A stretch of 64,000 nt of DNA from Chitinophaga ginsengisegetis (GTDB lineage: Bacteria; Bacteroidota; Bacteroidia; Chitinophagales; Chitinophagaceae), in assembly GCF_900168065.1 (NCBI RefSeq), contig NZ_FUZZ01000001.1, positions 2,228,623 through 2,292,622 of the forward strand. The letters are read 5' to 3'. The translations under genes were made by a program, and so were the position numbers. Shown one piece after another: positions 9,178 through 55,027 of the stretch. Every line of letters begins with the position of its first letter. Positions within the stretch are counted from its first letter, which is position 1. The notes beneath the pieces were generated by a model. The model did not search any database and was not told the origin of the DNA. It saw only the letters and a program-made list of their open reading frames with translations.

Positions 9178-9387
9178 CAGCGCCTTCGGCGCTGGCGGAT
9201 TTTGTCTTTCTCAGGATTAAACTGATTCAACTGATTTCGTTGATTTGATCACTTTTGATTTAAACTGATTTTGGGAGATATAAGCGAAAATATTCGTTTA
9301 TATCTCCCAAAATCATTTATAAAATCCCAAAAATAAAATCAACGAAATCAGTTGAATCAGTTTAATCCTGAGAAAGACAAAATCCGC
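9178..9387. repeat. Long inverted repeat, copy A
   Basis: The whole gap between the convergent YpdA and murB genes. Three parts. A 7-bp hairpin with loop TTC at 9178-9194. Two arms, 9195-9246 and 9336-9387, that are perfect reverse complements over 52 bases. An inner hairpin (9266-9315) built on GGGAGATATAAGCG and its complement, with one G-T pair. The arm contains a repeated GATTnnnCT unit. A transcript from either side would fold into a very long hairpin. Related copies lie near 26.9, 43.6 and 54.9 kb. Confidence 0.95.
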
Positions 9388-9394
9388 GGCGATC

Positions 9395-10411
9395 CTAAAC
9401 AATATTCACCTCGCGCTCCAGCTCCACCCCAAACTTCTCTTTTACACTATCCATTACCTGCTGGGACAGGTGGTAAATTTCGCTTCCCTTTGCATGACCG
9501 TAATTCACCAGTACCAGCGCCTGCCTGGCGTGTACGCCGGCATCGCCGTTACGGTATCCTTTCCAGCCGCATTGTTCAATGAGCCAGCCGGCGGCCAGCT
9601 TGAAATGTTCATCTGCCACGGGGTAGGCTACCATAGCGGGGAACGCTGCGTGCAGTTGTTCATACACGGCTTTGGTAACGGTAGGGTTTTTAAAGAAACT
9701 ACCTGCATTCCCTATTTCTGCGGGGTTGGGCAATTTGGAAGAACGGATGTTTATCACTGCCTGGCTGATGGCCTGGATAGAAAGCTCCTGCACATTCATA
9801 CGCTGGAGTTCTTCATTGATAGCGCCGTAGCTGGTATTAAAATGCGGTTGTTTGCTTAACCGGTAAGTAACGGATAAAATAGCAAACTGGTTTTTATATT
9901 CTTTTTTGAAGATGCTTTCGCGGTAACCGAAATGACAATCGGCATTATTGAAAGTAACGATGCTGTGATCTTTCAGGTGCAGGGCTTCCAGTTCATAAAA
10001 TACATCTTTTATTTCCACGCCATAGGCGCCGATATTCTGCATGGGGCTGGCGCCTACGTTACCTGGTATCAGGGAGAGGTTTTCAAGGCCGGCGAGGTTT
10101 TGCGCGATGCAGTGTTGCACAAACCCGTGCCAGTTCTCTCCTGCGCCTGCTTTCACATATACGTAGTCGTTATCTTCCCCGGTAACGGTGATGCCTTTGA
10201 TTTCATTTTTCAGCAGCCAGCCGTTAAAATCCTGTGTGAACAGGATATTGCTGCCGCCGCCCAGGATCATCTGGGGCAGGCCATCCTGCTGTTGATGTTC
10301 TGTGAACGACTTCAGCTCTTCCGCGGAGGAAAAGGACGCGAAATAACGTGCAGTGGCGTTGATACCGAAAGTATTATATGATTTGAGCAGAACATTTTCT
10401 GATACCTGCAT
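9395..10411 (-). CDS. murB: UDP-N-acetylenolpyruvoylglucosamine reductase
   Basis: 338 residues, the length of the type I (E. coli-like) enzyme. It reduces UDP-GlcNAc-enolpyruvate to UDP-MurNAc with NADPH and FAD in the cytoplasm, the second committed step of peptidoglycan synthesis. Visible motifs: SYNTFGINATARYFASF at the start, the FAD-binding ILGGGSNILF, LSLIPGNVGASPMQNIGAYG, and GNAGSFFKNP, whose Ser is the proton donor. The C-terminal part contains AAGWLIEQCGWKGYRNGDAGVH. Its 3' end abuts repeat copy A. A TATCTTTG element lies 22 bases upstream of the start. Confidence 0.97.
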   Translation of the reverse strand: MQVSENVLLKSYNTFGINATARYFASFSSAEELKSFTEHQQQDGLPQMILGGGSNILFTQDFNGWLLKNEIKGITVTGEDNDYVYVKAGAGENWHGFVQHCIAQNLAGLENLSLIPGNVGASPMQNIGAYGVEIKDVFYELEALHLKDHSIVTFNNADCHFGYRESIFKKEYKNQFAILSVTYRLSKQPHFNTSYGAINEELQRMNVQELSIQAISQAVINIRSSKLPNPAEIGNAGSFFKNPTVTKAVYEQLHAAFPAMVAYPVADEHFKLAAGWLIEQCGWKGYRNGDAGVHARQALVLVNYGHAKGSEIYHLSQQVMDSVKEKFGVELEREVNIV

Positions 10412-10433
10412 AATAACTTAAATTTATGGTCAG

Positions 10434-10441
10434 CAAAGATA
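10434..10441 (-). promoter_or_regulatory. -7 element upstream of murB
   Basis: TATCTTTG on the minus strand, a full match to TAnnTTTG. No TTTG was found at the expected upstream distance, so this is a partial promoter match. Confidence 0.45.
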
Positions 10442-10484
10442 GCCGCAAATCATTTAGAAATCATAAATCCTATAATCCAGTTTC

Positions 10485-11147
10485 ATGAATAAAACGGCGA
10501 TTGTAATAGGCGCAACAGGACTCACCGGCACCCACCTGGTGGCAGCCCTGCTGCACGACCCGGCCTTCAGTAAAGTGAAGGTACTGGTGCGGCGGCCCTG
10601 GGCGCATGCCAGGCCAAAACTGGAAAGCATCATTGTGGACTTTGAAGATGAAGAGAGCCTGGCGGCGGCGCTGCATGGGGACATTCTCTTTTGCTGTATC
10701 GGTACCACTATCAAAAAGGCCGGCAGCCAGGAACGTTTCAGGGCAGTGGATTATGATATTCCTGTGAAATGTGCCCGGATTGCAAAGGAACAGGGCGTCA
10801 CCCAATTCCTGCTGATGTCTTCTGTCAGCGCCAATCCTAACTCCCGCAACTTTTATTTGCGTACAAAAGGAGCAACAGAAGAAGCCATTCAGAAAGTGGG
10901 TTTCCACAGCGTGAATATCTTCCGGCCTTCGGTGCTGATAGGTCAGCGTAAAGAATTCAGATTCGGCGAATGGATCGGCAGATATCTTATCCAGCTTTTT
11001 TATTTTTTATTACAGGGAAGATGGAAAAAATACCGGGGCATCAAAGCGGCAACCGTTGCCAATGCCATGATCATAGCAGCAAAGGAGAATGATGAAGGCG
11101 TGAGCATCTATGAATCGGATGCTATTCAGAGCATGGGCGAGTCGTGA
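10485..11147 (+). CDS. NAD(P)-binding Rossmann-fold protein (NmrA/HTATIP2-like)
   Basis: 220 residues. The dinucleotide-binding motif GATGLTGTHLVAAL is at residues 8-21, followed by VLVRRPW and the mid-protein LLMSSVSANPNSRNFYLRTKGATEEA with a Tyr-x(3)-Lys arrangement typical of extended or atypical SDR proteins. It resembles the oxidoreductases annotated as HIM1/HTATIP2-like. The substrate is unknown. It is divergent from murB and lies 33 bases upstream of the DUF3857 gene, possibly one transcript. Confidence 0.75.
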   Translation: MNKTAIVIGATGLTGTHLVAALLHDPAFSKVKVLVRRPWAHARPKLESIIVDFEDEESLAAALHGDILFCCIGTTIKKAGSQERFRAVDYDIPVKCARIAKEQGVTQFLLMSSVSANPNSRNFYLRTKGATEEAIQKVGFHSVNIFRPSVLIGQRKEFRFGEWIGRYLIQLFYFLLQGRWKKYRGIKAATVANAMIIAAKENDEGVSIYESDAIQSMGES

Positions 11148-11180
11148 AAATCCGGAATTTGAGTCTTATCTTTAACCCGT

Positions 11181-13151
11181 ATGAAAAAATGGGTCCTTCT
11201 TCTGGCTGTTGCAGGTATTGCAATACTGCCGCTATCTATGCAGGCGCAGGTAAACAGCTACTTTCCTGAGATATGGAAAGATAATCCACAGCTGCATACC
11301 ACTCCATCTACCGATGCTCCTTACACGATCGTGGATTACAGAATGGTCAGGGATTTTAATGTAAGTCCGCGTGATAAAGCACAAGCCACTTCGCACTATA
11401 AAACACTGTACAAAAATATAAAGGTAAACACACAGCGTGCGGCGGATAGCCTCACCCGCCTGGTAATGTCGATGGAACCCAGCGAAGCCTTGCGTGGCTT
11501 ACGTATCCGGGTGATACATCCCGGTGGCACCGTGACCAGCCTGAACGAGCAGGTAAGGATGATTGAAATGGACCGCGAACGGAAAGCAATAGTGGCTAAC
11601 AACCTCGTGCTGGAAGCCGGCTGTGAAATTGAGTATGAGCTGAGCCTGAAAGTACAGTACGATTACGCCGGCACCGACTACCTCCAGTCCGGCATTCCCT
11701 GCAACCAGCTTAGCTTTGTGCTGATAGCGCCAAAAACGCTTGATTTTATGGTGAAGCCCGGCGCCGGTTTACCCGCGTTGCAGGACAGTATTGCCGGTAA
11801 CAACCACTACTACCAGTTAAGCATGCAGAATATGCCGGCGCTACCCAACAGCGACCTGTATTTTTACCTGCCGCAACTGAAACGGATTGATTTCGGATTG
11901 AAGCAGGCAATAGAAGGAAAAGATACCGTACGTATGACCTGGCAAAAGTTTGGGGAAGATAGTTATATCCCCTTTGTGGCGGTATCAAAAGCAGAATATA
12001 AGCAACTGGAAAAAGAATTGCAGAAGTGGCCTTTCCTGAAACAACGGATTCCAGTTCCGCAGATGATCTACCTGGTAGAACAATTTATCAAATCCAATTA
12101 CCGGCTGGTAGAGCCTTCTGAAACCGGCGAAACGGTGGATATCATTTCCATTATCCGTAATAAGCAGGCAGAGAAAGCAGGGTTTACCCGTTTGATGAAT
12201 GCCGTGTATTATATGCTGAATATTCCCACGCAGATATTGTTCACCACTTCCCGCGACAGTTTACTGATGGACAGCCAGCTGGTGTACCGGCAGCTGCCCA
12301 CCAATGTATTGCTGTACTTCCCCGGATTGCAACAGGCATTGGCGCCAACGGAAACGAATACACGTTTTCCGTGTTACCCCTCATTGTGGACCGGTATTCC
12401 TGCATTGCGCTGCCGTGATACGCTGGTGGCGGGAGAAAGCAAAGTGCTGACCGATTTTATTCAAACGCCGGCGCCGCCGTATACCCTGAGTAACATTACC
12501 ACCGAGGCTACGCTCCGGTCGGTAACAGATCCTACCTGGGATGTAAAGCAATCTTTTGGCGGCTACCCTGCATCTAACCTGAAAACAGCCTTTGGCGGTA
12601 CCGGCAGCACACCGGAAGGCCGGCTGCAGGTATATAATGCCATCCTTCCGTTTGAACCGGGTATCAGGAAACCCACGGAAGTGAAAGCAGAAAACGAAGT
12701 GTTTAATAACCGCACCCTGGATAAACCTGTGTTGCTGAGCAGTACGTTACTTACCACATCTTCCGTAGAAAATAAAAATAACAGCATTGTTATCCACGTT
12801 GGTCCTTTACTGGGTGGTAATATACCAGTGGATATCCCGCTTCCGCCGGGCGATCTGCCGGTCCAGATTACTTTTCCTTATTACCAGGAAAGGCGCGTGA
12901 TCATTCCTCTGCCGGCGGGTTATAAAGTAGCGAACAAGGAAGATTTTTCGGCAGAAATAAATGATAAAGGAGCTGATCCTGCGTTGGGTTTTAAAATGCG
13001 GTGTGAGCAGGACGGCAATCAACTGCGCATTTTTGTACTGGAGTGGTATAAAAAAACAGATTTCTCCGGAAGCAGTAAAGCCGTATTCGGGCAGTTGCTG
13101 GAAAGGATCCATACGCTTCAGCAGCAGGACCTGGTACTGGTGAAAGAATAA
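11181..13151 (+). CDS. Secreted DUF3857-type protein with degenerate transglutaminase domain
   Basis: 656 residues with a signal peptide ending near AQAQ/V (residues 1-22). The N-terminal part (DFNVSPRDKAQATSHYKTLYKNIKVNTQRAAD, then GLRIRVIHPGGTVTSLNEQVR) has the pattern of DUF3857 proteins, which are exported in Bacteroidota. The middle region corresponding to a transglutaminase core (RLMNAVYYMLNIPTQILFTTSRD) lacks the Cys normally found in a GDCKD-like motif, so it is probably not catalytic. The C-terminus is beta-rich. Its stop is three bases from the convergent priA stop, with no room for a terminator. Function unknown. Confidence 0.65.
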   Translation: MKKWVLLLAVAGIAILPLSMQAQVNSYFPEIWKDNPQLHTTPSTDAPYTIVDYRMVRDFNVSPRDKAQATSHYKTLYKNIKVNTQRAADSLTRLVMSMEPSEALRGLRIRVIHPGGTVTSLNEQVRMIEMDRERKAIVANNLVLEAGCEIEYELSLKVQYDYAGTDYLQSGIPCNQLSFVLIAPKTLDFMVKPGAGLPALQDSIAGNNHYYQLSMQNMPALPNSDLYFYLPQLKRIDFGLKQAIEGKDTVRMTWQKFGEDSYIPFVAVSKAEYKQLEKELQKWPFLKQRIPVPQMIYLVEQFIKSNYRLVEPSETGETVDIISIIRNKQAEKAGFTRLMNAVYYMLNIPTQILFTTSRDSLLMDSQLVYRQLPTNVLLYFPGLQQALAPTETNTRFPCYPSLWTGIPALRCRDTLVAGESKVLTDFIQTPAPPYTLSNITTEATLRSVTDPTWDVKQSFGGYPASNLKTAFGGTGSTPEGRLQVYNAILPFEPGIRKPTEVKAENEVFNNRTLDKPVLLSSTLLTTSSVENKNNSIVIHVGPLLGGNIPVDIPLPPGDLPVQITFPYYQERRVIIPLPAGYKVANKEDFSAEINDKGADPALGFKMRCEQDGNQLRIFVLEWYKKTDFSGSSKAVFGQLLERIHTLQQQDLVLVKE

Positions 13152-13154
13152 ATT

Positions 13155-16357: not shown

Positions 16358-16430
16358 AAACGCCTCGGAAGGTTTAATATGGCGGAAAACTACGAAGAAA
16401 ATTACTAATTACGTGGAACCGGGCGCCGAT

Positions 16431-22191: not shown

Positions 22192-22266
22192 TGGGAGCTA
22201 CTGGATTCGAACCAGTGACCCTCTGCTTGTAAGGCAGATGCTCTGAACCAGCTGAGCTAAGCTCCC
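22192..22266 (-). tRNA. tRNA-Val (anticodon UAC), third in the transcript
   Basis: 75 bases including the discriminator A. Acceptor stem GGGAGCT/AGCTCCC, D-arm AGCTCAGCTGGTTCAGAGC, anticodon loop CTTACAA giving UAC, T-arm with GGTTCGAATCC. Identical to the two neighbouring copies. Confidence 0.97.
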
Positions 22267-22299
22267 GTAAAGATCTTTTGGAGGTGTTGTATTGTAGTG

Positions 22300-22374
22300 T
22301 GGGAGCTACTGGATTCGAACCAGTGACCCTCTGCTTGTAAGGCAGATGCTCTGAACCAGCTGAGCTAAGCTCCC
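22300..22374 (-). tRNA. tRNA-Val (anticodon UAC), second in the transcript
   Basis: Same 75-base sequence as the flanking copies; spacers of 33 and 41 bases separate the three. Both spacers contain AGATCTTT, suggesting a duplication that included flanking sequence. Confidence 0.97.
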
Positions 22375-22415
22375 TCTTAAAGATCTTTGGAAAAATATGT
22401 CAAATTACTGTAGTG

Positions 22416-22490
22416 TGGGAGCTACTGGATTCGAACCAGTGACCCTCTGCTTGTAAGGCAGATGCTCTGAACCAGCTGAGCTAAGCTCCC
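22416..22490 (-). tRNA. tRNA-Val (anticodon UAC), first in the transcript
   Basis: Identical in sequence to the other two. It lies about 40 bases downstream of a perfect Bacteroidota promoter (22534-22564, minus strand). Confidence 0.97.
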
Positions 22491-22768: not shown

Positions 22769-22806
22769 AGGGAGACAGAAGCCGGTATACCTGCTTTTAT
22801 CTCCCT
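22769..22806 (-). terminator. Terminator after the lipoprotein gene at 22.8 kb
   Basis: AGGGAGA (22769-22775) pairs with TCTCCCT (22800-22806), extended inward by GAAGC/GCTTT pairing. On the minus strand it is followed by a T-rich stretch. The same GGGAGA...TCTCCC core occurs in the long inverted repeats and in other terminators here. Confidence 0.65.
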
Positions 22807-26467: not shown

Positions 26468-26854
26468 ATGCTTCCGTTATTCAAACCCGGTGATACCAAA
26501 TATTTCAGCCGCATCGTGCGGCCGGAAGACTGTGCCTCATTTGACAGCGGGCATGTGCATCCCGTATACGCCACCTTTGCACTGGCGCGGGATGCAGAAT
26601 GGTGCTGCCGTTTGTTTGTACTTGATATGAAGGAAACATCGGAGGAAGGCATTGGCACCCGGCTAACCGTGGAGCATCTCTCCCCCGCTTTAACCGGCAG
26701 CCGGGTGGACTTTACAGCCGTGATCACACAAATACAACATCATGAAATCACCTGTAGTTACGAGGCCGTTTGCAATGGCCGTATCGTTGCTACAGGTATA
26801 CAGGTGCAGAAAATTCTTTCTAAAGAAAAATTGGAGAAGTTGTTTACGCAGTAA
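26468..26854 (+). CDS. FlK-like hotdog-fold thioesterase
   Basis: 128 residues. The fold and catalytic residues match the fluoroacetyl-CoA thioesterase-like family: Thr in YATFALARDAEW with the Glu eight positions later, and His in GTRLTVEHLSPALTGS. Such proteins hydrolyse acyl-CoA thioesters; the Bacteroidota members have no assigned substrate. It starts 12 bases after mntH, so it is probably part of the mntR-mntH operon, although a metabolic link is not obvious. Repeat copy B begins at its stop codon. Confidence 0.78.
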   Translation: MLPLFKPGDTKYFSRIVRPEDCASFDSGHVHPVYATFALARDAEWCCRLFVLDMKETSEEGIGTRLTVEHLSPALTGSRVDFTAVITQIQHHEITCSYEAVCNGRIVATGIQVQKILSKEKLEKLFTQ

Positions 26855-27080
26855 GATCGCCTTCGGCGATTGCGAGTTTTGTCTTTCCCAGGATTAAACT
26901 GATTATACTGATTTCGCTGATTTTATTTTTTAGGATTTTATAAAAGATTTTAAACGATCAGGGGAGATATAAGCGAAAGTATCCGCTTATATCTCCCCTG
27001 ATCATTTAAAATTCAAAAAGTCAAATCCCGGAATCAGTATAATCAGTTTAATCCCGGAAAAGACAAAATCCGCTTCGATC
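26855..27080. repeat. Long inverted repeat, copy B
   Basis: Fills the gap between the convergent thioesterase and LytTR genes. It starts with GATCGCC-TTC-GGCGAT directly after the stop codon. Outer arms: 26891-26913 and 27032-27054 are perfect complements over 23 bases, with imperfect matches outside. Inner hairpin: 26956-26975 and 26984-27003, perfect over 20 bp with an eight-base loop, built on GGGGAGATATAAGCG. The right-end small hairpin is degraded. Compared with copy A, the variable triplets of the GATTnnnCT units differ but remain complementary. Confidence 0.93.
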
Positions 27081-27082: not shown

Positions 27083-27823
27083 CTATAACCCAAGCGCCGC
27101 CTTCAGGCGCGGGTAACCGGTTTTGCTCACCAGCACCCTGGCGCCGCTGCGCAGTATAGCCAGGTGGTTTTCTTTTTCGTAGGGGTCTATACGTGTTACC
27201 TGGTTTACGTTGAGTATATAAGAGCGATGCACCCGCGTAAACTGTTGCGGGTCCAGCATTTTTTCGAAGAACGACATTGTTTTATTTTTCAGGAAGCTAC
27301 CTTCCTGGGTTACTATTTTCACGTAGTCGTCTGCTGCTTCCAGGTAATGGATATCCTGTACCGGGATGATTTTGATTTTACCATTGATCTTTATTACCAC
27401 GCGGTTGCTTTGCAAAGGTGTGGCAGCAGCAGTTTCCAGCAACGCTTCCGTATTGGTGGCTGCAGGTGTTTGAAAATGATCCAGCCATTTTTGTACGGCC
27501 TTATCAAAGCGATCGCTGGAAAAAGGTTTCAGCAGGTAATCGACCGCATGCACTTCAAAGGCCCTGATAGCATGCTCTTCAAAGGCTGTGGTAAAGATCA
27601 CGGCAGGCATATTTTCCACGAGTTCCAGCATTTCAAAACCGGTGATCTTTGGCATTTGTATATCCAGGAAAATGATATCCGGCTGATGCTGTTGTATGGC
27701 CTTTAATCCTTCAAATCCATCATTGCATTCCTGTACCACTTCTATTTGCGGGAAGCTTAACAGGTATTCCTTCACCACTTCACGGGCCAATGGTTCATCA
27801 TCAATTAATACTGCTTTTATCAT
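27083..27823 (-). CDS. LytTR-type response regulator
   Basis: 246 residues from ATG 27823 (MIKAVLIDDEPLAREVV); longer upstream starts would add non-homologous sequence that overlaps the kinase. Residues 1-120 are a receiver domain: DDE acidic pocket, phosphoacceptor Asp in IIFLDIQMP, and the conserved Lys in YLLKPF. Residues 145-246 are a LytTR DNA-binding domain (IHYLEAADDYVKIVTQEGSFL, RVHRSYILNVNQV). It overlaps the kinase gene by 23 bases, forming a two-component pair. Confidence 0.93.
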   Translation of the reverse strand: MIKAVLIDDEPLAREVVKEYLLSFPQIEVVQECNDGFEGLKAIQQHQPDIIFLDIQMPKITGFEMLELVENMPAVIFTTAFEEHAIRAFEVHAVDYLLKPFSSDRFDKAVQKWLDHFQTPAATNTEALLETAAATPLQSNRVVIKINGKIKIIPVQDIHYLEAADDYVKIVTQEGSFLKNKTMSFFEKMLDPQQFTRVHRSYILNVNQVTRIDPYEKENHLAILRSGARVLVSKTGYPRLKAALGL

Positions 27824-28865
27824 GCGATTGTGGTACTTTAATAATGGTAGTAAATATATTATCAATGGCCGTGGTTTCCAGCAGGTCCTGCCGTGCAAAC
27901 AGCAGGTACAGCCTGCGTTGTATGGAAGTTAAGCCGAAACCGGTTCCTTTATTGGGTTGCTGCAGTTCGTTGTCGAACGGATTTTGTATGGCGATATACA
28001 ACATGTTATCCTGCAGCCATGATTTTATGCTGATGGTGATATCACCGGTGGTATCGTATAGTCCGAACTTGATCGCATTTTCTACTACCGGCTGCAGCAG
28101 CATCGGCGGCATCATCATTTTATCTGCTTCCTCATAAGGCACAACGTTGGTGGTTAAACGATGCCCGAAACGTACTTTCTCTATATCCAGGTAAAGCTGC
28201 AGGTAGTTCAGTTCTTCCGCGAGTGTGATCCACTGGTCATCTTCACGTTTCAATGATCCTCTTAAAAAGTCGGAGAGCTTCAGTACCATTTCGCGGGCTT
28301 CTTTTGGCCGTAGCATGATGAGCGCATTGATGGAGTTGAGGCTGTTAAACAGGAAATGCGGCTGCAGTTGCTGCCGCAGTTTAAAGAGTTCTGCTTCTCT
28401 TACAATCCTCTCAGTAGCTTCTTTGCGTTGGCGGTATTCCTGTTGTTCTTCCTCATCGTACCACATCTGGCTCCTGAATCCGATCCCTGCAATCAGCATG
28501 CATCCAACAATAGCATGAACGGGGATGGCATTGTTCAGCCAGTTGAGATACGGTACATCTTCCGGGAAGGCGGATACCAGTATCCAGCGGCTCAGGCACA
28601 CCCACAATACAGACAATGCAAAACTCAGAACAGCTACATAGCCAAACTTCATGGTGCCATCTGCCGGGCGGTAATAAGCCACGTTATGGCTTATTACAAT
28701 ACCGGCGGCTCCCAGTAGTATAACGTGCACTGCACTGTCTGTGACCGATTGCCAGAGGGGAAGGTCGAACCAGTACCACAGCAACCCGCCATACAGGAAC
28801 ATCCAGATGGCGAAGGAGGCGAGAAAAGCCCACCAGGCATTACCTTTAATCAGTTGCTTTACCAA
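27801..28865 (-). CDS. LytS/YpdA-type sensor histidine kinase
   Basis: 354 residues. About four N-terminal membrane segments, then the His_kinase (LytS) domain with the phosphoacceptor motif QLQPHFLFNSLNSINALI, and an ATPase domain ending in GTGFGLTSIQRRL. The only plausible start is a TTG at 28865, 17 bases after the DUF4288 stop; the next ATG lies inside the first membrane segment. It signals to the overlapping LytTR regulator. No ligand domain is visible outside the membrane part. Confidence 0.9.
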   Translation of the reverse strand: MVKQLIKGNAWWAFLASFAIWMFLYGGLLWYWFDLPLWQSVTDSAVHVILLGAAGIVISHNVAYYRPADGTMKFGYVAVLSFALSVLWVCLSRWILVSAFPEDVPYLNWLNNAIPVHAIVGCMLIAGIGFRSQMWYDEEEQQEYRQRKEATERIVREAELFKLRQQLQPHFLFNSLNSINALIMLRPKEAREMVLKLSDFLRGSLKREDDQWITLAEELNYLQLYLDIEKVRFGHRLTTNVVPYEEADKMMMPPMLLQPVVENAIKFGLYDTTGDITISIKSWLQDNMLYIAIQNPFDNELQQPNKGTGFGLTSIQRRLYLLFARQDLLETTAIDNIFTTIIKVPQSHDKSSIN

Positions 28866-36096: not shown

Positions 36097-36177
36097 CTGC
36101 AGTAAATCGCTATGGTAAAGATAGGGATTTACAAATACTGTGCTGAAAATTTTTGGAGATAAAAGAGGCAAAGGCAT

Positions 36178-36440
36178 TTACGGGTTTCTTCAATATTGCT
36201 ACCGGAAACTTTTGTGCTGTTTTCAGGAAAGATGTTTTATGTTCGGTATCACAAAAAATGAAAAGAAGAAGTGATATTATGAAATGTGACACCATATAAA
36301 TGCTACGGTGAATGACAGACCAGAAAAATTGTTTGCTGCAAGCAAATCATGATACCCGGTTTTCCATTTAATACGGGGCAAATGAAAAATGCCATCATAT
36401 AACATTTATTACTAAATTATGGCTACCCAAAAAGGGCCAT
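36178..36440. other. Gap upstream of the L,D-transpeptidase gene
   Basis: AT-rich and without a convincing ORF (a 61-codon minus-strand frame was judged spurious). It holds a short palindrome TTTGCT-GCA-AGCAAA (36332-36346) and, close to the gene, a TATCTTTA element on the minus strand (36116-36123), one base from the -7 consensus. Confidence 0.4.
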
Positions 36441-36606
36441 AGTGTATGGGGAGTGTATGGGAAGTGTATCATGAGTGTATGGTGAGTGTATGGGAACAGT
36501 ATAGGGAGTGTATGGGAACAGTATAGGGACTATATAGGAACTGTATAGGAACTACAACACATACACGAGTCCTAAGTATCTGAGAAGTATCCGAGAAGTA
36601 CCCAAG
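36441..36606. repeat. Array of 11-bp tandem repeats
   Basis: Ten units in perfect 11-base register occupy 36441-36550, for example AGTGTATGGGA, ACAGTATAGGG and ACTGTATAGGA; nearly all share TATRGG in fixed position. After a 23-base break a second set of three 11-base units (AAGTATCTGAG, AAGTATCCGAG, AAGTACCCAAG) runs 36574-36606. Eleven bases is close to one helical turn, so the motif would recur on one face of the DNA. The period is not a multiple of three, so it is not coding. Confidence 0.9.
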
Positions 36607-36642
36607 AAGCAACTCCAATACGTAACATTTTTTAATAATACA

Positions 36643-36671
36643 AAAGCCGCAGACATTACATCTGCGGCTTT
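36643..36671. terminator. Hairpin terminator downstream of the repeat array
   Basis: AAAGCCGCAGA (36643-36653) pairs with TCTGCGGCTTT (36661-36671), seven-base loop. Symmetric A and T flanks allow either direction. Confidence 0.82.
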
Positions 36672-36781
36672 AATTATTTCCCCCCTGCTAATACTACCTG
36701 CAACAATCCTTTTTCACAAAAAGCGACTGAATAAATTTCAATATGCTTACAACAACTTTCTTCATGTCCGGATTTTTTTAA

Positions 36782-42347: not shown

Positions 42348-43559
42348 ATGAACTTACACGAGTACCAGGCTAAAGAACTGTTGAAAAAATATAATGTACC
42401 GGTACAGGAAGGTATTCCGGTGGATACCCCTGAAGCGGCTGCGGAAGCATACAAGCAGCTGAAAGTGCAATTTGGTAATGAATTTGCCGTTGTAAAAGCC
42501 CAGATTCATGCGGGCGGACGTGGAAAAGGTAAGATCCGTGGTACGGAACAGAGAGGTGTGGCAGTAGGAAAAAATGCAGAAGATATTAAAAACATAGCAG
42601 GAAATATCCTGGGAGGTACCCTGGTTACCATTCAAACCGGCGACGCAGGCAAACTGGTAAACAAAGTACTGGTAGCACAGGATGTTTACTATCCGGGCGC
42701 TAACCCTGTAAAGGAATTCTACCTGTCCATCCTGCTGGATCGCGCTAAAAGCCAGAACGTTATCATGTACTCCACTGAAGGTGGTATGGATATCGAAGAA
42801 GTAGCACACAGCACTCCTGAAAAAATATACAAAGAATGGGTAAAACCCAATATGACCCTGCAGCCCTTCCAGGCGCGTAACATTGCTTTTAACTTCGGTT
42901 TGAGCGGCGAAGCGTTCAAAAACATGGTGAAATTTGTAACCAATCTCTATAACGCTTACGTAGGACTGGATTGCAGCATGCTGGAAATCAACCCGCTGTT
43001 CAAAACCAGCGATGAGAAGATCATTGCTGTAGATGCCAAAGTAAACCTGGACGACAACTCCCTGATGCGTCATCCCGACCTGGAAGCACTGCGTGATATT
43101 TCTGAAGAAGATCCTACAGAAGTAGAAGCCAGCAAATACAACCTGAACTTCGTGAAACTGGATGGTAACGTAGGCTGTATGGTAAACGGCGCTGGTTTGG
43201 CAATGGCCACTATGGACATGATCAAACTGAGCGGCGGTGAACCGGCTAACTTCCTGGACGTAGGCGGTACCGCCAACGCGCAAACCGTAGAAGCAGGTTT
43301 CCGTATCATCCTGAAAGATCCTAAGGTAAAGGCTATCCTGATCAATATCTTCGGTGGTATTGTTCGTTGCGACAGGGTTGCCCAGGGTGTAATTGATGCC
43401 TACAAATCTATTGGTAACATCACCGTACCTATCATTGTACGTTTACAGGGTACCAATGCTGCTGAAGCAAAAGTACTGATCGAAGAAAGCGGTCTGAAAG
43501 TACAATCAGCCATCCTGCTTAGCGAAGCAGCTGCACTGGTAAATAAAGCAGTTAGCTAA
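42348..43559 (+). CDS. sucC: Succinate-CoA ligase (ADP-forming) beta subunit
   Basis: 403 residues. The ATP-grasp subunit of the TCA-cycle enzyme. Motifs: MNLHEYQAKELLKKYNVPV at the start, KAQIHAGGRGKGKIRGT, LEINPLFKT, DGNVGCMVNGAGLAMATMD and NIFGGIVRCDRVAQG. The alpha subunit gene sucD is not adjacent; a PBP1A gene on the other strand follows. The stop codon overlaps the first base of repeat copy C. Confidence 0.96.
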   Translation: MNLHEYQAKELLKKYNVPVQEGIPVDTPEAAAEAYKQLKVQFGNEFAVVKAQIHAGGRGKGKIRGTEQRGVAVGKNAEDIKNIAGNILGGTLVTIQTGDAGKLVNKVLVAQDVYYPGANPVKEFYLSILLDRAKSQNVIMYSTEGGMDIEEVAHSTPEKIYKEWVKPNMTLQPFQARNIAFNFGLSGEAFKNMVKFVTNLYNAYVGLDCSMLEINPLFKTSDEKIIAVDAKVNLDDNSLMRHPDLEALRDISEEDPTEVEASKYNLNFVKLDGNVGCMVNGAGLAMATMDMIKLSGGEPANFLDVGGTANAQTVEAGFRIILKDPKVKAILINIFGGIVRCDRVAQGVIDAYKSIGNITVPIIVRLQGTNAAEAKVLIEESGLKVQSAILLSEAAALVNKAVS

Positions 43560-43776
43560 TCGCCTTCGGCGATAGAAATTGTCTTGGAGCAGGATTACGC
43601 TGATTATACTGATTTCAAGGATTTGATCAATTTTGATTTTAATAAATTAAGGGAGATGGAAGTGGGTATCCACTTTTATCTCCCTTAATCATTTTTATAG
43701 AAATCTAAAAAAATCCGATAAATCAATATAATCAGCGTAATCCTGCTCCAAGACAATTTCTATCGCCGAAGGCGAT
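43559..43776. repeat. Long inverted repeat, copy C
   Basis: Lies between the convergent sucC and PBP1A genes, starting inside the sucC stop codon and ending four bases before the PBP1A stop. Arms 43559-43608 and 43727-43776 are perfect complements over 50 bases, then one mismatch and six more pairs. Both ends carry the ATCGCC-TTC-GGCGAT hairpin. The inner hairpin (centred near 43670) is ATTAAGGGAGATGG... against its complement over 20 bp with two G-T pairs. Triplets in the GATTnnnCT units differ from copies A, B and D. Confidence 0.95.
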
Positions 43777-43779
43777 CCA

Positions 43780-46161
43780 CTACTCTCCTTTTTTCGGAAC
43801 TGCCGGCGGCATAGTAGCTTTCGGCTTGTTTTCTTTATTGTCTTTGTGTTCCTCCTTTGGCTTTGCCGGCGCAGGTTCCTGGCTGTCGGCGCCCGGAGTG
43901 GCATAATCGCTGGCATCACCGGAGCCATAATCATCTGCCGATCCGTTACCCACGTTTTCTGATTCAGCACCCGGTTTTACATTGGAATCGTAATTCATGT
44001 AAATATCGTCTTCGCTCATATTGGGCGGTACCGGGAAATGATCGTTGGAACTTATCTTCAGGGTTGGATCAGCATACACTTTCTGCATGAAATACGCCCA
44101 GATGGGTAAGCCGGTATTGGCACCCTGACCGATGGCCGTTGTGCTGAAGTGGATAAAGTTGTTTTCGCAACCTACCCATGCGCCAGCCAGTATTTTGGGT
44201 GTATAGCCCATAAACCATCCATCGGTGTTATCGTTGGTGGTACCGGTTTTACCGGCTATTTCACCTTGTATATTAAAGCGGGAACGGACACGGGCGCCGG
44301 TACCACCCGGTGCTACCACGCCTTCCATCATTTTCACCATTGTATAGGATTCCCTTTCGCTGATCACTTCACGTTTTACCGGTGCAAAAGTTTCCAGGAT
44401 ATTACCGTTTCTGTCTTCAATACGGGTAATATAAATAGGTTTGGTATTGATGCCCCTGGCAGGGAACATCGTGTATCCCTGCAGCAGTTCGTACAGCGAC
44501 AGCTCCACGGCGCCCAGCGCAATGGCCGGGTAGGCAGGGATATCGCTGGTGAAGCCCACTTTATTTTTGGCGAAATCAGCAAACGGCTTGGCGCCAATCT
44601 GTTTGATCAGGTAGGCGGCCACAAGGTTCAGTGATTTTGCCAGTGCGCCGGCCATCGTAATGCTACCGCCGGTACTGCCTTCCGAGTTATGCGGAGTCCA
44701 GCCGTTGATGGAAATGGGTTCGTTTGGCAGAACGGTATTTGGCGACATGCCATTCATGATGGCAAAGCAGTACAGGAAGGGTTTAAATGTAGAACCCACC
44801 TGACGGCGTGTTTTCGCCACGTGATCATTTTTGAAGTAGCGGAAGTCCGGTCCGCCTACCCAGGCTTTTACTTCACCACTTTCAGGGTCCATTGCCATAA
44901 AGCCCGCCTGTAAAATGGCGCGCATATATTTGATGGAATCCAGCGGAGTCATAGTGGTGTCTATTTCATTCAGGTCTGGTTCAGTAGAGCTTCTCCAGCC
45001 AAACACCTTCATGCGTACGGGGGTATTGAACACCCGCGCAATGGTAGAATCGTCTGCTTCATCCTCTTTCATGGATTTATAGCGGTCAGATTCTTTCATG
45101 TACTGATCCAGGAATTTCGGCCATTTCTTCCAAACGCTGCCGGTTTTGACATCGTTCTGAGCAGAGAGTGATTTTTGCAGTACAGCCAGGTGTTTAGCCA
45201 CGGCTTCTTCTGCATATAACTGCATTCTCGGGTTAATGGTAGTATATATTTTGAGCCCGTCGCGGTAAAGGTTATATTCTGATCCGTCGGCTTTCTTATG
45301 CACTTTACACCAGCCTTTCAGCTCATCGCGCAATACTTCCCTGAAATAAGGAGCCAGTCCTTTGTTGTGATCAATTTTATTATAGTGCAGTACAATCGGT
45401 TTGCTTTTCGCAGATGCGGCTTCGGCTGGGGTGATAAAGCCGGCTTCCTGCATATTGCTGATAACGGTGTTGCGGCGCTGGAGGGCGTTTTGCGGATTCC
45501 TGCGCGGGTTATACAGGGTGTTACCTTTGAGCATGCCCACCAGGATAGCGGCTTCTTCGATGGATAAATGACCGGCATCTTTACTGAAAAATGTTCTGGC
45601 GCCGTTTTCAATACCATATACGTTATCCCCGAAAGCCACGGTGTTCAGGTAGAGGGTAAGAATTTCCTGTTTGGTGAAGTTTCTTTCCAGTTTTACGGCA
45701 ATGATCCACTCCTGTACTTTCTGAAACGCCCTGCCGATAGGGTTACCGGAGCGCTGTTTCCCCAGGTTATCCGTTTGCAGGTTCAGGGCCAGCTGCTGGG
45801 TAATGGTACTGGAACCGCGTTTTTTACCGATGAGCAGGTAAAAAGGAATAGCCAGTGTGCCTTTGGGGTCAATACCGGAGTTATCATAAAAACGGGTTTC
45901 CTCAGTTGCTATCAGCGCATTGATCACGTTTTTGGAGATCTCATTATAGTCGCTGCTGGAACGGTCCACCTGGTAGTATTTACCGAGAATGGTGCCGTCG
46001 TCGGCAATTACTTCTGCGGCCAGTGCTGCCCGCGGATTTTCCAGTTCTTCCAGAGACGGCATACTGCCGATGATCCGGAAGTTAATGAGTAAAACTAAGA
46101 GAACAAGTAATGCTAAGATACCAAAAGCCACCCGCCACAATATTTTCACCGATTTTTTCAT
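43780..46161 (-). CDS. Penicillin-binding protein 1A-type transglycosylase/transpeptidase
   Basis: 793 residues. N-terminal membrane anchor (ILWRVAFGILALLVLLVLLINF). GT51 domain: EETRFYDNSGIDPKG with the catalytic Glu, and GSSTITQQLALNL. Transpeptidase domain: Ser457-T-F-K460, the S-L-N motif at 510, and AGKTGTTNDNTDGWFMGY. The C-terminal 90 residues are a low-complexity tail rich in Pro, Glu, Asp and Lys. It polymerises and cross-links peptidoglycan outside the inner membrane. The SprE-like gene lies 172 bases upstream on the same strand. Confidence 0.95.
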   Translation of the reverse strand: MKKSVKILWRVAFGILALLVLLVLLINFRIIGSMPSLEELENPRAALAAEVIADDGTILGKYYQVDRSSSDYNEISKNVINALIATEETRFYDNSGIDPKGTLAIPFYLLIGKKRGSSTITQQLALNLQTDNLGKQRSGNPIGRAFQKVQEWIIAVKLERNFTKQEILTLYLNTVAFGDNVYGIENGARTFFSKDAGHLSIEEAAILVGMLKGNTLYNPRRNPQNALQRRNTVISNMQEAGFITPAEAASAKSKPIVLHYNKIDHNKGLAPYFREVLRDELKGWCKVHKKADGSEYNLYRDGLKIYTTINPRMQLYAEEAVAKHLAVLQKSLSAQNDVKTGSVWKKWPKFLDQYMKESDRYKSMKEDEADDSTIARVFNTPVRMKVFGWRSSTEPDLNEIDTTMTPLDSIKYMRAILQAGFMAMDPESGEVKAWVGGPDFRYFKNDHVAKTRRQVGSTFKPFLYCFAIMNGMSPNTVLPNEPISINGWTPHNSEGSTGGSITMAGALAKSLNLVAAYLIKQIGAKPFADFAKNKVGFTSDIPAYPAIALGAVELSLYELLQGYTMFPARGINTKPIYITRIEDRNGNILETFAPVKREVISERESYTMVKMMEGVVAPGGTGARVRSRFNIQGEIAGKTGTTNDNTDGWFMGYTPKILAGAWVGCENNFIHFSTTAIGQGANTGLPIWAYFMQKVYADPTLKISSNDHFPVPPNMSEDDIYMNYDSNVKPGAESENVGNGSADDYGSGDASDYATPGADSQEPAPAKPKEEHKDNKENKPKATMPPAVPKKGE

Positions 46162-49426: not shown

Positions 49427-49693
49427 GGATGCCAGGGTGTATAGGCTAAATATATATAACTTACAGTTTGAAAAAATATTTTAAAGATAGGATAAAATAG
49501 TTGATTGAATATCTGTGTGGCAGAAGTGATGCTGACTTTTTTCCGGCAGCAGATATATTTTAATAGGTTGGTTTTCAGATAAAAAGACTTCTTTCTGCCT
49601 ACAATCCTCAAAACACTGTTTCCTATTTTGCAATAATGATTAACTTTAGCCCGCCTTAAAAGAAATAGCATTCTTTAAGAAGTACCGCAAAAC

Positions 49694-50098: not shown

Positions 50099-50167
50099 TA
50101 TATAAATACAAAAATTTAATATATATTTATTTATATTACACACTAAACTTGAAAAACCTAACTCCCT

Positions 50168-51162: not shown

Positions 51163-51167
51163 TCTAT

Positions 51168-51788: not shown

Positions 51789-52717
51789 CTCTTCTCCCCT
51801 ACATAATGCAATACCGGGTATGCCATTGCACGGTTGATCAGCTGGATTTCCAGCTGCAGGATACCGGCTTCTGCTTTGGCCTGTAACTTAGGCGCATCAT
51901 CGGTAGGCTTGTGATAGTCGTCGTGACCACCGGTATGAAAAAACATCACCGGTACCCCGCTTATATAGAAATTATGATGATCGGAAGCGCCCTTCCCTGC
52001 TGCATCGGTAAAGTATTTAATGCCGGGTTGCTGCACTTCTTTGAACACAGCAGGCCATTCTTCCGCGCTGCCATAGCCGCCAATACCGATTCCCCGCTCC
52101 GGGTTATAACGGCCAATCATATCCATATTGAGCATGAAATGTACTTTATCCAGCGGCATCAGCGGATGTGCGGTGTAATATTTTGAGCCCTGTAATCCCA
52201 GCTCTTCGCCGCCGAAAGCAATGAAGAGAAAGTTAAAGGGTTCGCGGCCCTGGTTTTTTACATAGTACCGCGCCAGTTCCAGCAGGCCGGCCACGCCGGA
52301 AGCGTTATCATCTGCGCCGTTGTGGATTTCACCGATGGGATATTTTCCATCGAATAAAGCGGCCGTTCCGAGGTGATCATAGTGGGCGCCAATGATAATC
52401 GTACGTGCGGCACCGTTATCCAGGTACCCGATCACATTTCTGCTGGGGATATCTTTATGTTCTTTCCGGGTGAAGGTAAAATCCTGGAAGAAACTATTGC
52501 CGTTTACCGGCTTCAGTCCCAGTTTTTTAAACTGTTTTGCCACGTAATTGCTGGCTGTTTTCCCACCCTTTTCTGCGGTGCCCCTGCCTTTCAGTTTATC
52601 TGAGGCCAGGTAGTTCACTATTCCCTGAATACGTGCAGCATCCGGAATCGTATCCTGTGCCTGTGCGGCGGTGATTGTACCAGCAGCGCACATCAATAAA
52701 AACCATCTCTTTATCAT
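51785..52717 (-). CDS. Secreted M28-family aminopeptidase
   Basis: 310 residues with a signal peptide ending in AAQAQ. Zinc ligands appear in order: GAHYDHLG (His, Asp context), NGADDNASGVAGLLELAR (bridging Asp), GGEELGLQGS (catalytic Glu and ligand Glu), DMIGRYN, and the distal SDHHNF. These are the M28 peptidase positions. It removes N-terminal residues from peptides in the periplasm or outside the cell. Confidence 0.9.
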   Translation of the reverse strand: MIKRWFLLMCAAGTITAAQAQDTIPDAARIQGIVNYLASDKLKGRGTAEKGGKTASNYVAKQFKKLGLKPVNGNSFFQDFTFTRKEHKDIPSRNVIGYLDNGAARTIIIGAHYDHLGTAALFDGKYPIGEIHNGADDNASGVAGLLELARYYVKNQGREPFNFLFIAFGGEELGLQGSKYYTAHPLMPLDKVHFMLNMDMIGRYNPERGIGIGGYGSAEEWPAVFKEVQQPGIKYFTDAAGKGASDHHNFYISGVPVMFFHTGGHDDYHKPTDDAPKLQAKAEAGILQLEIQLINRAMAYPVLHYVGEKS

Positions 52718-52734
52718 ATCCGGTCAAAAATAGA

Positions 52735-52760
52735 GAAGGCTTCCTTAACGGGAAGCCTTC
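52735..52760 (-). terminator. Terminator of yidC
   Basis: GAAGGCTTCC (52735-52744) pairs with GGAAGCCTTC (52751-52760); on the minus strand the sequence continues into TCTCTATTTTTG. It lies about 40 bases after the yidC stop. Confidence 0.7.
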
Positions 52761-52800
52761 TGCGAAAAAATATTATTGAAATGTTCAGATTGTATTAATC

Positions 52801-54651
52801 CTACTTTTTCTTCTGTTGAATTTCCTGCTGGCGTTTCTGGACTTCTTCCAGTTTCTCCTGCCACTTGGATTTGCTCTTTGGTTTCTTCTTATTTTCCTGG
52901 ATCTGTGCGTGAATTTTATCATGGTTGATGATAAATTTCTGGATCACGAACTGTAACAGGATACTGATCACGTTAGACAGGAAGTAGTAGAAGGTAAGCG
53001 CCGCAGCGAGGCGGTTGAAGATACCCAGCAACATTACCGGCATTACGTAAGGCATGTACTTCATCACCGGGTTGCTCTGATCGGTCATTCCACGGTTGTA
53101 GAACGCCAGGATCAAACTGGTGATGGTCATGAGGATGGTGAACAAGCTCACGTGGTTACCATAGAATGGTATGTTGAAGCCGAGGTTCAGGATAGAGTCG
53201 TAAGTAGACAAATCCTTTGCCCACATAAAGCTTTCCTGGCGCAGCTCAATGGAAGACGGGAAGAAGCTGTACATCGCTACCAGGATAGGCAGCTGCAGCA
53301 ATGCGGGTAAACATCCGCCCAGCGGGTTTACACCTGCACTCTTGAACAGTTTCATTTGTTCCACACCGAATGCCTGCTGGTCGTCGCCATACTTTGCTTT
53401 CAGCTCATCAATTTCAGGTTTCAGCACTTTCATTTTAGCCTGGGAAACATAGCTCTGGTAAGTGAAAGGAGCTATCAGCAGGCGGATGAAGAGGGTGAGC
53501 AGGATAATGATGATACCATAGTTACTGATAAATCCGCTCAGGAAGTTAAACACCGGGATAATGATAAAGATGTTCACATACTTCACAAAAGCAAAGATAC
53601 CGGTGCCCAGCGGGATGATCTTCTGCAAACCGATATCGAAAGATTTCAGTGTTTTATAGTGGTTAGGACCATAATAGATTTCAATCGGGAAGGAGAAATC
53701 ATTGGTACGGCTATACGGAATCTGTATAGTGCTGAATGTTTGTCCTACGATATTGGGGCTTACCGGCACTTTCGTGTTTACATCCACGTTAGTGAACAGT
53801 TCCTTTTTAGCAATCAGGGTGGTGTTGAAGAACTGCTGTTTTACGCTCACCCATTTCAGTTTGTTTTCCAGTTTTTCATGACTGGTACGGCTGAGGGTAA
53901 AGTAATCATGCTTATCATTTTCCAGCATATAGTGCACCTGGTTGTTCAGGCGCTCGTTTTCGAGGTCGTGTTCCTGTTTATCTTCCTGGCTGTTCCACTG
54001 GAGGCTCAGGTAGTTCTGGTTGCCTGGCAGTAAGCCCTGCATACCAACGGCGTGAATGGTATAGTCTACCACGTAGCTGCCTGGTTTCAGGGAATAGATA
54101 AATTCCAGGTAAGAAGCCGGGTTATTGGTATTAAGACGGTAAGCGATTGTTTTTACGCCACCTGCGCCTTCCTGGGGTTGGCCGGCGGTGAAAAACAGAT
54201 CCGCACTGTTCAGCATTTTTGTTAAGCTGGCAGGCACTTCTACCGAGAGGCGGTTAAAAGAGCCTTCAACGAGCATCAGCGGGCCGCCATCATAAGTTTT
54301 GTATTGTTTCAGTTGTACACTTGCCGGTTGGCCACCTTTATTGGAAAAAGTGATCTTTACCACATCGTTTTCCAGTACTGTGTTCTGCACGTTGCCGGTA
54401 GCAGCAGCGGCAAACGCGCCAAATTCGCCGTTTAACAGCGCCTGGTGGGCTGAATCCAGCTGGCCTCCTGCGGCGGCTGCAGCAAGGCTGACAGTATCTG
54501 CTAAAGGTGTTTTAGGCTTGTTAAGCTCTGCGATGGAATCTTGCCTGGCTTTTTCCCTTGCGGCTCCTGCCTGTTGTTTCTGGTTGAAGAATATATATCC
54601 TACCAACAAAACGCCCAACAGTAAAAACCCAATGACCGAATTTCTATCCAT
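52801..54651 (-). CDS. yidC: Membrane protein insertase YidC
   Basis: 616 residues from ATG 54651 (MDRNSVIGFLLLGVLL); a TTG nine bases earlier is possible but unlikely. First membrane helix at 7-25, a large periplasmic domain (about 30-360), then five membrane helices. The core contains YGIIIILLTLFIRLLIAPFTYQSYVSQAKMKVLKPEIDELKAKYG, with the hydrophilic-groove Arg, and the cytoplasmic coiled coil. The C-terminal tail is strongly basic (KKKPKSKSKWQEKLEEVQKRQ). It inserts proteins into the inner membrane with or without SecYEG. Confidence 0.96.
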   Translation of the reverse strand: MDRNSVIGFLLLGVLLVGYIFFNQKQQAGAAREKARQDSIAELNKPKTPLADTVSLAAAAAGGQLDSAHQALLNGEFGAFAAAATGNVQNTVLENDVVKITFSNKGGQPASVQLKQYKTYDGGPLMLVEGSFNRLSVEVPASLTKMLNSADLFFTAGQPQEGAGGVKTIAYRLNTNNPASYLEFIYSLKPGSYVVDYTIHAVGMQGLLPGNQNYLSLQWNSQEDKQEHDLENERLNNQVHYMLENDKHDYFTLSRTSHEKLENKLKWVSVKQQFFNTTLIAKKELFTNVDVNTKVPVSPNIVGQTFSTIQIPYSRTNDFSFPIEIYYGPNHYKTLKSFDIGLQKIIPLGTGIFAFVKYVNIFIIIPVFNFLSGFISNYGIIIILLTLFIRLLIAPFTYQSYVSQAKMKVLKPEIDELKAKYGDDQQAFGVEQMKLFKSAGVNPLGGCLPALLQLPILVAMYSFFPSSIELRQESFMWAKDLSTYDSILNLGFNIPFYGNHVSLFTILMTITSLILAFYNRGMTDQSNPVMKYMPYVMPVMLLGIFNRLAAALTFYYFLSNVISILLQFVIQKFIINHDKIHAQIQENKKKPKSKSKWQEKLEEVQKRQQEIQQKKK

Positions 54652-54675
54652 GAAATGCAATTAAAATTTAGGCAG

Positions 54676-54683
54676 CAAAGGTA
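54676..54683 (-). promoter_or_regulatory. -7 element upstream of yidC
   Basis: TACCTTTG on the minus strand, 24 bases upstream of the yidC ATG. Full match; no TTTG at 19-21 bases further up. Confidence 0.48.
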
Positions 54684-54803
54684 AGCAGGATTTTATGAAT
54701 TGACCATGCTTTTTAGGTGAAACCCCTGTTAAATGCGGCTAAAATAATAAATAAGTAAAGAAAATGCGTATCCTATTGAGGATCAGAGCGGTTTGGGCGG
54801 AGG

Positions 54804-55027
54804 GGATCGCCTTCGGCGATTGTCTTTTTCAGGATTAGACTGATTGAGCTGATTTCACTGATTATATTCCCGGAGATTTTAGTTAAAATGAAAGAGGGAG
54901 ATATAAGCGAATATTTATCCGCATATATCTCCCATTATCTTTTAAAATCAAACGTAATCAAATCAGTGAAATCAGCTCAATCAGTCTAATCCTGCACCAA
55001 GACAATTTCTATCGCCGAAGGCGATCC
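54804..55027. repeat. Long inverted repeat, copy D
   Basis: Between pyrG and yidC, both on the minus strand, so here the neighbours are not convergent; the element begins ten bases after the pyrG stop. Arms 54830-54863 and 54961-54994 are perfect complements over 34 bases, and both ends carry GGATCGCC-type hairpins. The left arm lacks seven bases (an AGAAATT-like block) present on the right. The inner hairpin around 54896-54933 uses GGGAGATATA/TATATCTCCC. The rest of the gap to yidC has only its promoter element. Confidence 0.94.

What the first reader, a model, noticed from the sequence alone, without database searches (positions are those of the whole stretch)
9178..55027. A family of four long inverted repeats with self-consistent but different arms
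Copies at 9178-9387, 26855-27080, 43559-43776 and 54804-55027 share one design. A small hairpin of CGCC-TTC-GGCG type comes first, then a long arm with tandem GATTnnnCT units. A terminator-like inner hairpin built on GGGAGAT/ATCTCCC follows, and then the reverse complement of the arm. Perfect arm complementarity reaches 52 bp (A), 50 bp (C), 34 bp (D) and 23 bp (B). Between copies the nnn triplets and the inner stem flanks differ, yet within each copy most changes are matched on the other arm, including G-T pairs in the inner stem. That implies either selection on a folded RNA or DNA, or a copying process that re-perfects palindromes, such as template switching. I know of no named family with this design.
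Basis: partly seen in the sequence, partly recalled or inferred. Interest (0 to 1): 0.82.

Follow-up and report, generated by a model that had tools for sequence, protein, structure and literature searches.

The report
Self-matching hairpin repeats at gene ends
Four long hairpin-forming DNA repeats in a soil bacterium belong to a large, fast-changing set that sits right after gene stop codons, and the two arms of each copy appear to be kept alike by DNA copying between the arms rather than by selection on RNA pairing.

Summary
All four copies are there and fold far better than shuffles (z -18 to -22). They are a small sample of one family: the genome has 80 forward and 90 reverse arm matches against 0 in the control. 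In 57 strictly parsed copies (of 77) the first variable triplet is the same in both arms in 51 (re-paired mean 8.3). Copies sit beside gene 3' ends: 49 of 65 such ends lie within 10 nt of a stop codon. The family is patchy in Chitinophaga. Two unrelated families of the same design exist in other species, and at three orthologous sites two species with 94-95% identical DNA carry different families. I read the elements as mobile hairpin repeats that serve as two-way transcript ends (inferred). The arms are kept matched mainly at DNA level by template switching: arm mismatches show no G-T preference (30 GT, 27 AC), and orthologous family-2 stems show 15 double changes against 1.6 expected, 6 of them transversion-type. 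Loops are inverted between two species at 4 of 35 comparable hairpins (0 of 10 in the other pair). How copies spread is unknown: no target duplication, and no Y1/RAYT transposase in the three genomes rich in the window's family.

The parts
9178..9387 (.). Copy A: whole element between two convergent ORFs (8207-9175 + and 9395-10411 -)
9195..9246 (+). Copy A left arm, 52/52 complementary to 9336-9387
9273..9308 (.). Copy A inner hairpin GGGAGATATAAGCG...CGTTTATATCTCCC with one G-T pair
26855..27080 (.). Copy B: element directly after the stop of ORF 26468-26854 +, before ORF 27083-27898 -
26962..26997 (.). Copy B inner hairpin, fully paired
43559..43776 (.). Copy C: element that overlaps the TAA stop of ORF 42348-43559 + and ends 3 nt before the stop of ORF 43780-46161 -; outer 50 bp perfect (43559-43608 with 43727-43776)
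43651..43684 (.). Copy C inner hairpin with two G-T pairs; the only terminator-like site found in 43400-43900 (+ strand, stem 43646-43689)
54804..55027 (.). Copy D: element downstream of ORF 55037-56683 -; arms 54830-54863 and 54961-54994 perfect
54896..54933 (.). Copy D inner hairpin with one mismatch
22770..22805 (.). Inner hairpin only, no outer arms; the orthologous site in relative G002 has a full element

Best explanation
The four copies belong to a high-copy, gene-less repeat family of Chitinophaga (GATTnnnCT family). It is one of at least three sequence-unrelated families of the same design: long hairpin, arms built of short tandem units, position close behind stop codons. I read them as non-autonomous mobile hairpin repeats that occupy the place of the ordinary terminator, often between convergent genes, and act there as two-way transcript ends. 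Shown: family, copy number, position, patchiness, arm matching, turnover at orthologous sites. Inferred: terminator function and mobility. The arms of a copy stay matched because, when the locus is replicated, one arm serves as template for the other (template switching, also called quasipalindrome correction). This rewrites mismatches and now and then inverts the loop. So variable positions drift between copies but stay mirrored within a copy. How new copies reach new sites is not known.
For: Family and copy number: (80+90 matches, control 0). Arm matching not due to family conservation: (57 parsed of 77; triplet 1 same in 51 against a re-paired mean of 8.3 and maximum of 19; spacer 48 against 6.7; triplet 2 46 against 13.3; 52 combinations). 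Within-copy arm difference 2.6% against 14% between copies (30 copies). No wobble preference: 30 G-T, 27 A-C (53 of 57 copies). Orthologous family-2 stems, G017 against G018: 10 sites, 310 pairs, 15 WC-to-WC double changes against 1.56 expected if right-arm changes fall at random (maximum 7 in 1000 trials); one-sided losses 6 to G-T, 12 to A-C. Loop inversion: 4 inverted, 16 direct of 35 comparable hairpins. Position: 38 of 77 convergent, 36 codirectional, 3 divergent, against 36, 133 and 44 of 213 spacers; of 65 recognised ends facing a gene 3' end 49 lie within 10 nt of the stop, of 25 facing a 5' end none. Orthologous sites can hold an ordinary terminator or another family. Patchy distribution.
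Against: Arm correction was measured across species mainly in family 2, not in the window's own family: G000 and G002 arms at shared sites are too different to align pair by pair, and one search found 0 inverted loops in 10 comparable G000/G002 hairpins. Ordinary hairpins show the same double-change excess (8 against 0.65), so the process is not special to these elements. The sites turn over so fast that some 'double changes' could be re-insertions of the same family: of 8 family-2 pairs aligned whole, 6 exceed the best non-orthologous identity and 2 do not, and the orthologous figures are helped by shared 15-nt flanks. In motif-found family-2 pairs, which do not presuppose arm matching, only 4 of 8 (G017) and 2 of 11 (G018) have identical 21-mers, though arm differences (0.88 and 2.09) stay below between-copy differences (4.27 and 4.19). 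The terminator role is unproven: after the full core stem only 21 of 60 copies have 5 or more T in 8 nt on either strand. The inner hairpin has a borderline G-T excess (38 to 22), which fits RNA-level selection there.
Confidence: 0.58

Rival explanations
1. Selection on the RNA hairpin: the transcribed element must fold, for example to end or protect the mRNA, so arm mutations are selected to be compensated.
For: Position at 3' ends; very stable folds; covariation and a G-T excess of 38 to 22 in the inner hairpin; core hairpins kept in G000 where the arms are lost at two orthologous sites.
Against: No wobble preference in the arms (30 to 27; 6 to 12). 6 of the 15 family-2 double changes are transversion-type, which two steps cannot reach through G-U. 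43 one-sided changes persist.
Confidence: 0.2
2. Born perfect: each copy is inserted as an already perfect palindrome made by a hairpin-copying transposition step, and only decays afterwards.
For: Rapid gain, loss and family swap at the same sites; 15 of 53 copies with no arm mismatch and a tail of decayed copies; the G002 copy at site D has clearly mismatched arms (by eye).
Against: Double changes in elements that look inherited, such as 261043 (2) and 469118 (3), and loop inversions with unchanged flanks. The best-conserved family-2 pair, 372588 (20 of 20 aligned loop positions), shows only one-sided changes, each of which makes a standard pair in G018, and does not decide between the two. 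No transposase candidate was found, but only Y1 was screened.
Confidence: 0.17
3. REP/REPIN-type elements moved by a Y1 (RAYT) transposase acting in trans.
For: Short, gene-less, palindromic, extragenic, many copies, population-like variation (REPIN properties recalled; papers seen in a search listing only). G028, G060 and G061 have both a Y1 gene and family 3.
Against: PF01797 has no match at E 1e-5 in G000, G002 or G026, the three genomes rich in the window's family. The 6 Y1 loci found carry no copy of the three families in the 3.2-3.3 kb held.
Confidence: 0.03

Closest known systems
Repetitive extragenic palindromes and REPINs (Proteobacteria)
   Same: Dispersed, extragenic, gene-less, palindromic, near gene 3' ends, tens to hundreds of copies (recalled; papers seen as listings)
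   Different: About 200 bp, tandem 9-bp units, no Y1 transposase in the three carrier genomes, copy-specific matched arms
Non-autonomous IS derivatives (MITEs)
   Same: Gene-less repeats with terminal inverted repeats, present at a site in one species and absent in a close one
   Different: No target-site duplication: 1 of 24 with a shared 3-mer or longer, 0.85 expected; matching at non-conserved positions; no parent IS seen
Template switching / quasipalindrome correction (PMC8794818: abstract and passages; PMC8604942: start of abstract in listing)
   Same: Homogenises inverted-repeat arms and inverts spacers; can explain multibase compensatory changes
   Different: Described there for RNA genes and for yeast; here it appears to shape a whole population of dispersed hairpin repeats in bacteria
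Intrinsic transcription terminators
   Same: Occupies the terminator position; orthologous sites in relatives can carry ordinary terminator-like hairpins (by eye)
   Different: Far longer, with a family sequence, often no T-run after the stem (21 of 60 with one)

Membership tests
REP/REPIN elements with RAYT | Y1 transposase (PF01797) in the carrier genome | tested here: not met
   0 matches in G000, G002, G026; 5 of 40 genus genomes have one
REP/REPIN elements with RAYT | Copies flanking the transposase gene | tested here: not met
   none of three families in 6 Y1 loci of 3.2-3.3 kb
REP/REPIN elements with RAYT | Many dispersed extragenic palindromic copies | tested here: met
MITE of a DDE insertion sequence | Target-site duplication | tested here: not met
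   1 of 24 copies with recognised tips on both sides, same as re-paired flanks (0.85); 53 of 77 copies not testable this way
MITE of a DDE insertion sequence | Autonomous parent IS with the same ends | not tested
   no transposase search other than Y1; three long copies read (L021, L039, L073) have no convincing gene
Intrinsic terminator | GC-rich hairpin directly followed by a T-run | tested here: inconclusive
   21 of 60 cores with 5 or more T in the 8 nt after the full stem on either strand (29 of 60 counted from GGGAGA/TCTCCC), no shuffle control; copy C one site against 0.4 expected
Any Rfam RNA family | Score at or above gathering threshold | tested here: not met
   only three tRNAs in the window, nothing in six loci
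Product of template switching between inverted-repeat arms | Arm homogenisation beyond independent change | tested here: met
   window's family, within genome; family 2 and ordinary hairpins, between species
Product of template switching between inverted-repeat arms | Spacer inversion with unchanged flanks | tested here: met
   4 of 35 comparable hairpins in G017/G018 (66491 a long family-2 element, 139855 a shorter hairpin classed with it, two ordinary hairpins); 0 of 10 in G000/G002, so not shown for the window's own family

The most novel reading that the evidence does not exclude
Gene 3' ends in these bacteria host a population of hairpins that spread and replace one another without any transposase. 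A hairpin is cut or stalls at its centre; the two identical ends both copy inward from another hairpin elsewhere. This gives the site a new, automatically self-matching pair of arms, and at times a different family. It would explain matched but copy-specific arms, family swaps at the same site in species with 94-95% identical DNA, elements nested in the centre of older ones (L071; G017 77241; G017 413038), tip-only remnants, and the absence of target duplications.
Probability: 0.15. Interest if true: 0.9.

Novelty: new variant of a known kind. Interest (0 to 1): 0.64.

Why it matters
Compensatory changes in stems are routinely read as proof of selected RNA structure. Here a large natural set of hairpins shows the same signal with no wobble preference, with transversion-type double changes and with inverted loops, so DNA copying alone may produce it. 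That makes the long-standing question of how paired positions change together directly testable, with dozens to hundreds of replicate loci per genome. The set also shows that bacterial transcript-end regions can be swapped for unrelated hairpin families within a few per cent of genome divergence, by a mover that is not yet known.

Tried and rejected
RAYT/Y1 as mover: rejected for the window's family; G028, G060 and G061 have both a Y1 gene and family 3, but their Y1 loci hold no copies. Classical insertion with target duplication: not supported. Insertion into pre-existing hairpin loops as a general rule: rejected, 1 of 24 copies has palindromic flanks against 0.96 expected, though single nested cases exist. 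Preferred orientation relative to transcription: none in the 25 codirectional G000 copies (5 against 7, 1 both, 12 none). Gene inside long copies: none convincing in the three read. Phage or plasmid origin: no match for copy C. Register-shifted shuffling of triplets between units: dropped by eye, because triplets 1 and 2 use different vocabularies. Covariance model: not built. Other transposase families were not screened.

Limits of the counts. One search scored 40 of 91 candidates, and one search listed about 100 of 170 matches, so the 77 elements (52 G000, 19 G002, 6 G026) are a sample; one search kept only places with both arms 80-800 nt apart. One search dropped 20 of 77 that did not fit a strict parse; one search used 60 of 77; one search used 53 of 57. 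One search used ends with a recognised tip: of 154 ends, 64 had none, 25 face a gene start, 65 face a gene end, of which the script left out 5 with gaps of -6 or 397-727 nt, probably mis-called neighbours; I count 49 of 65. One search used 10 family-2 and 19 ordinary sites; one ordinary site failed the alignment filter and one family-3 site (14 of 33 pairs unchanged, 3 double, 13 one-sided) was set aside. Genes were called by my own hexamer script. In the 464-kb comparison, 3 of 10 G000 and 4 of 22 G002 fuzzy left-arm matches were weak and not counted as elements; remnant calls are by eye.
Full report
1. What is there. The four inverted repeats are present as described. Their folded RNA is 18-22 standard deviations more stable than shuffles. 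They are not four: in the window's own genome (G000, 7.93 Mb) the arm pattern has 80 forward and 90 reverse matches at up to 2 mismatches, against none for the reversed control pattern. I take the genus to be Chitinophaga from the closest named protein, C. terrae at 96%.

2. Anatomy. From outside in: a tip (GCGGATTTTGTC type, or a CGCC-TTC-GGCG hairpin followed by nnGAAATTGTC); a variable spacer; GGATTAnnCTGATTnnnCTGATT; a less well matched inner arm that often differs between the two sides; and a core hairpin GGGAGATATAAGCG/CGCTTATATCTCCC. Each copy has its own letters at the variable positions, mostly mirrored on the other arm. Of 57 copies that a strict parse accepted (20 of 77 dropped), triplet 1 is identical in both arms in 51, the spacer in 48, triplet 2 in 46 and the tip in 27. 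When arms are re-paired at random the means are 8.3, 6.7, 13.3 and 6.3. There are 52 different spacer-triplet combinations. In the 8-nt-spacer class of G000 (30 copies), arms of one copy differ at 2.6% of sites and left arms of different copies at 14%.

3. Where it sits. Of 77 copies, 38 lie between convergent genes, 36 between codirectional genes and 3 between divergent genes. The 213 spacers of 30 bp or more in 464 kb of G000 split 36, 133 and 44 (genes called by my own script). Of 65 recognised element ends that face a gene 3' end, 49 are within 10 nt of the stop codon; of 25 that face a gene start, none. At the orthologous site of copy C, relatives such as C. terrae have ordinary terminator-like hairpins (five loci read by eye).

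4. Distribution. In 36 genomes of the genus the exact unit pattern is abundant only in G000 (51+50), G002 (59+58) and G026 (179+177), with a trace (2+2) in G033 and one stray match in G028. In 395 genomes of the phylum, at 1 mismatch, 177 have a match; most counts are 0-5 per strand, with a few richer ones such as G344 at 39+31, and controls of 0-3. Two unrelated families of the same design occur in other species. The AAAGC family (family 2) is rich in G017, G018, G033 and G059 (70+67, 74+75, 88+87, 299+312) and at 0-3 matches per strand in the other 36 of 40 genomes. The CGCAAAG family (family 3) is present in 11 of 40 genomes, with G017 71+61 and G060 65+66 the richest.

5. Turnover. G002 is colinear with G000 at about 87% identity. 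Over 464 kb, the 7 G000 copies have at the orthologous G002 site: both arms at 4 (one of them, site D, with a badly decayed right arm), a left arm and core only at 1 (G002 825685), and a tip-only remnant at 2. Of 15 G002 sites, G000 has a copy at 5, a remnant at 4, nothing clear at 5, and 1 (705113, a tandem triplication of left arms) is unresolved; remnants are judged by eye. At the shared sites whose sequences I read, the arms mostly belong to different subfamilies, while some cores share site-specific letters, for example the loop GGATAAACCC at G000 2261554 and G002 916426. G017 and G018 are 94-95% identical. At three sites (52742, 77241, 160063) G017 carries family 3 and G018 family 2; at the other 8 of 11 sites shown one has a long repeat and the other an ordinary hairpin or nothing long.

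6. What keeps the arms alike. (a) Arm mismatches in the window's family (53 copies): 30 G-T, 27 A-C, 68 other, so no wobble preference. The inner hairpin (60 copies) shows 38 G-T, 22 A-C and 27 other, a borderline excess that leaves room for RNA-level selection on the core. (b) Orthologous family-2 elements, 10 sites and 310 pairs: 15 Watson-Crick to Watson-Crick double changes where random placement gives 1.56 (maximum 7 of 1000 trials); 43 one-sided changes, of which 6 go from a standard pair to G-T and 12 to A-C. Of the 15, I count 6 as transversion types such as A-T to T-A. Ordinary hairpins (19 sites) show 8 against 0.65, five of them at one site. (c) Loops are inverted between G017 and G018 at 4 of 35 comparable hairpins (16 clearly direct), for example 66491 and 139855; G000/G002 gave 0 of 10. 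Arm homogenisation and spacer inversion are the traces described for template switching (PMC8604942, start of abstract in the listing; PMC8794818, abstract and passages). I therefore favour DNA-level copying between arms, with selection probably acting on the core. For the window's own family this rests on (a) and on the within-genome matching; (b) and (c) come from family 2 and ordinary hairpins.

7. What it probably does. Position, exchange with ordinary terminators, and retention of the core where the arms are lost point to a role as two-way transcript end. This is inference. Only 21 of 60 copies have a T-run (5 of 8) right after the full core stem on either strand, and copy C gave one terminator-like site against 0.4 expected.

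8. How it spreads. Not known. No target duplication, no Y1 transposase in G000, G002 or G026, no copy beside the Y1 genes found elsewhere in the genus, no convincing gene in three longer copies. Some elements lie in the centre of older ones, by eye: L071, where a GATT element interrupts the core hairpin of another; G017 77241 and 413038; one G026 copy. As a general rule palindromic flanks are not enriched (1 of 24).

9. Novelty. I found no named family with this design (open-licence papers only). The repeats resemble REP/REPIN and MITE populations but fail the transposase and target-duplication tests. The homogenising process is a known one. I rate the whole as a new variant of a known kind, with unusual value as a natural experiment on compensatory change.

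Noticed in passing
window 22770-22805: Core hairpin without outer arms between a tRNA cluster (three tRNAs at 22192-22490) and a gene; G002 has a full element there.
   Followed up: partly
window 36164-36694 and G000 C9:1962467-1962747: Degenerate tandem 11-mers (GTGTATGGGGA type) in spacers that G002 lacks; another short-unit repeat family without inverted arms.
   Followed up: no
G002 C1:620966, 772908, 946857: A different inverted repeat of about 110 bp with ends AGAGGCTGTATCATAA, very similar copies; looks like a young MITE, once at a site where G000 has a GATT tip remnant.
   Followed up: no
L039, L073, L075: Long GATT elements (517-560 bp) that share a non-palindromic interior with GTGGAGGGGAC-type 11-mers, part of which also matches other spacers.
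   Followed up: partly
L071 2048-2498: One GATT element appears nested in the loop of another element's core hairpin.
   Followed up: partly
L288 2718-2821; L295 2803-3039: At the orthologue of copy C's upstream gene, a Chitinophagaceae MAG and Niabella pedocola carry inverted repeats with other short tandem units (CTGATGT; GATTTGA), hinting that the design is wider than the genus.
   Followed up: no
G017 C32:217343, 355866 and G018 orthologues: Ordinary short hairpins also show inverted loops between the two species.
   Followed up: partly
G002 C1:705113-705408: Three near-identical left arms with core starts in tandem, followed by a single right arm: a partial triplication of one element.
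   Followed up: no
window 57541-57597: Small hairpin GGAGATGTTGTT..AACAACATCTCC where G002 has a full element; possibly a tip remnant.
   Followed up: no
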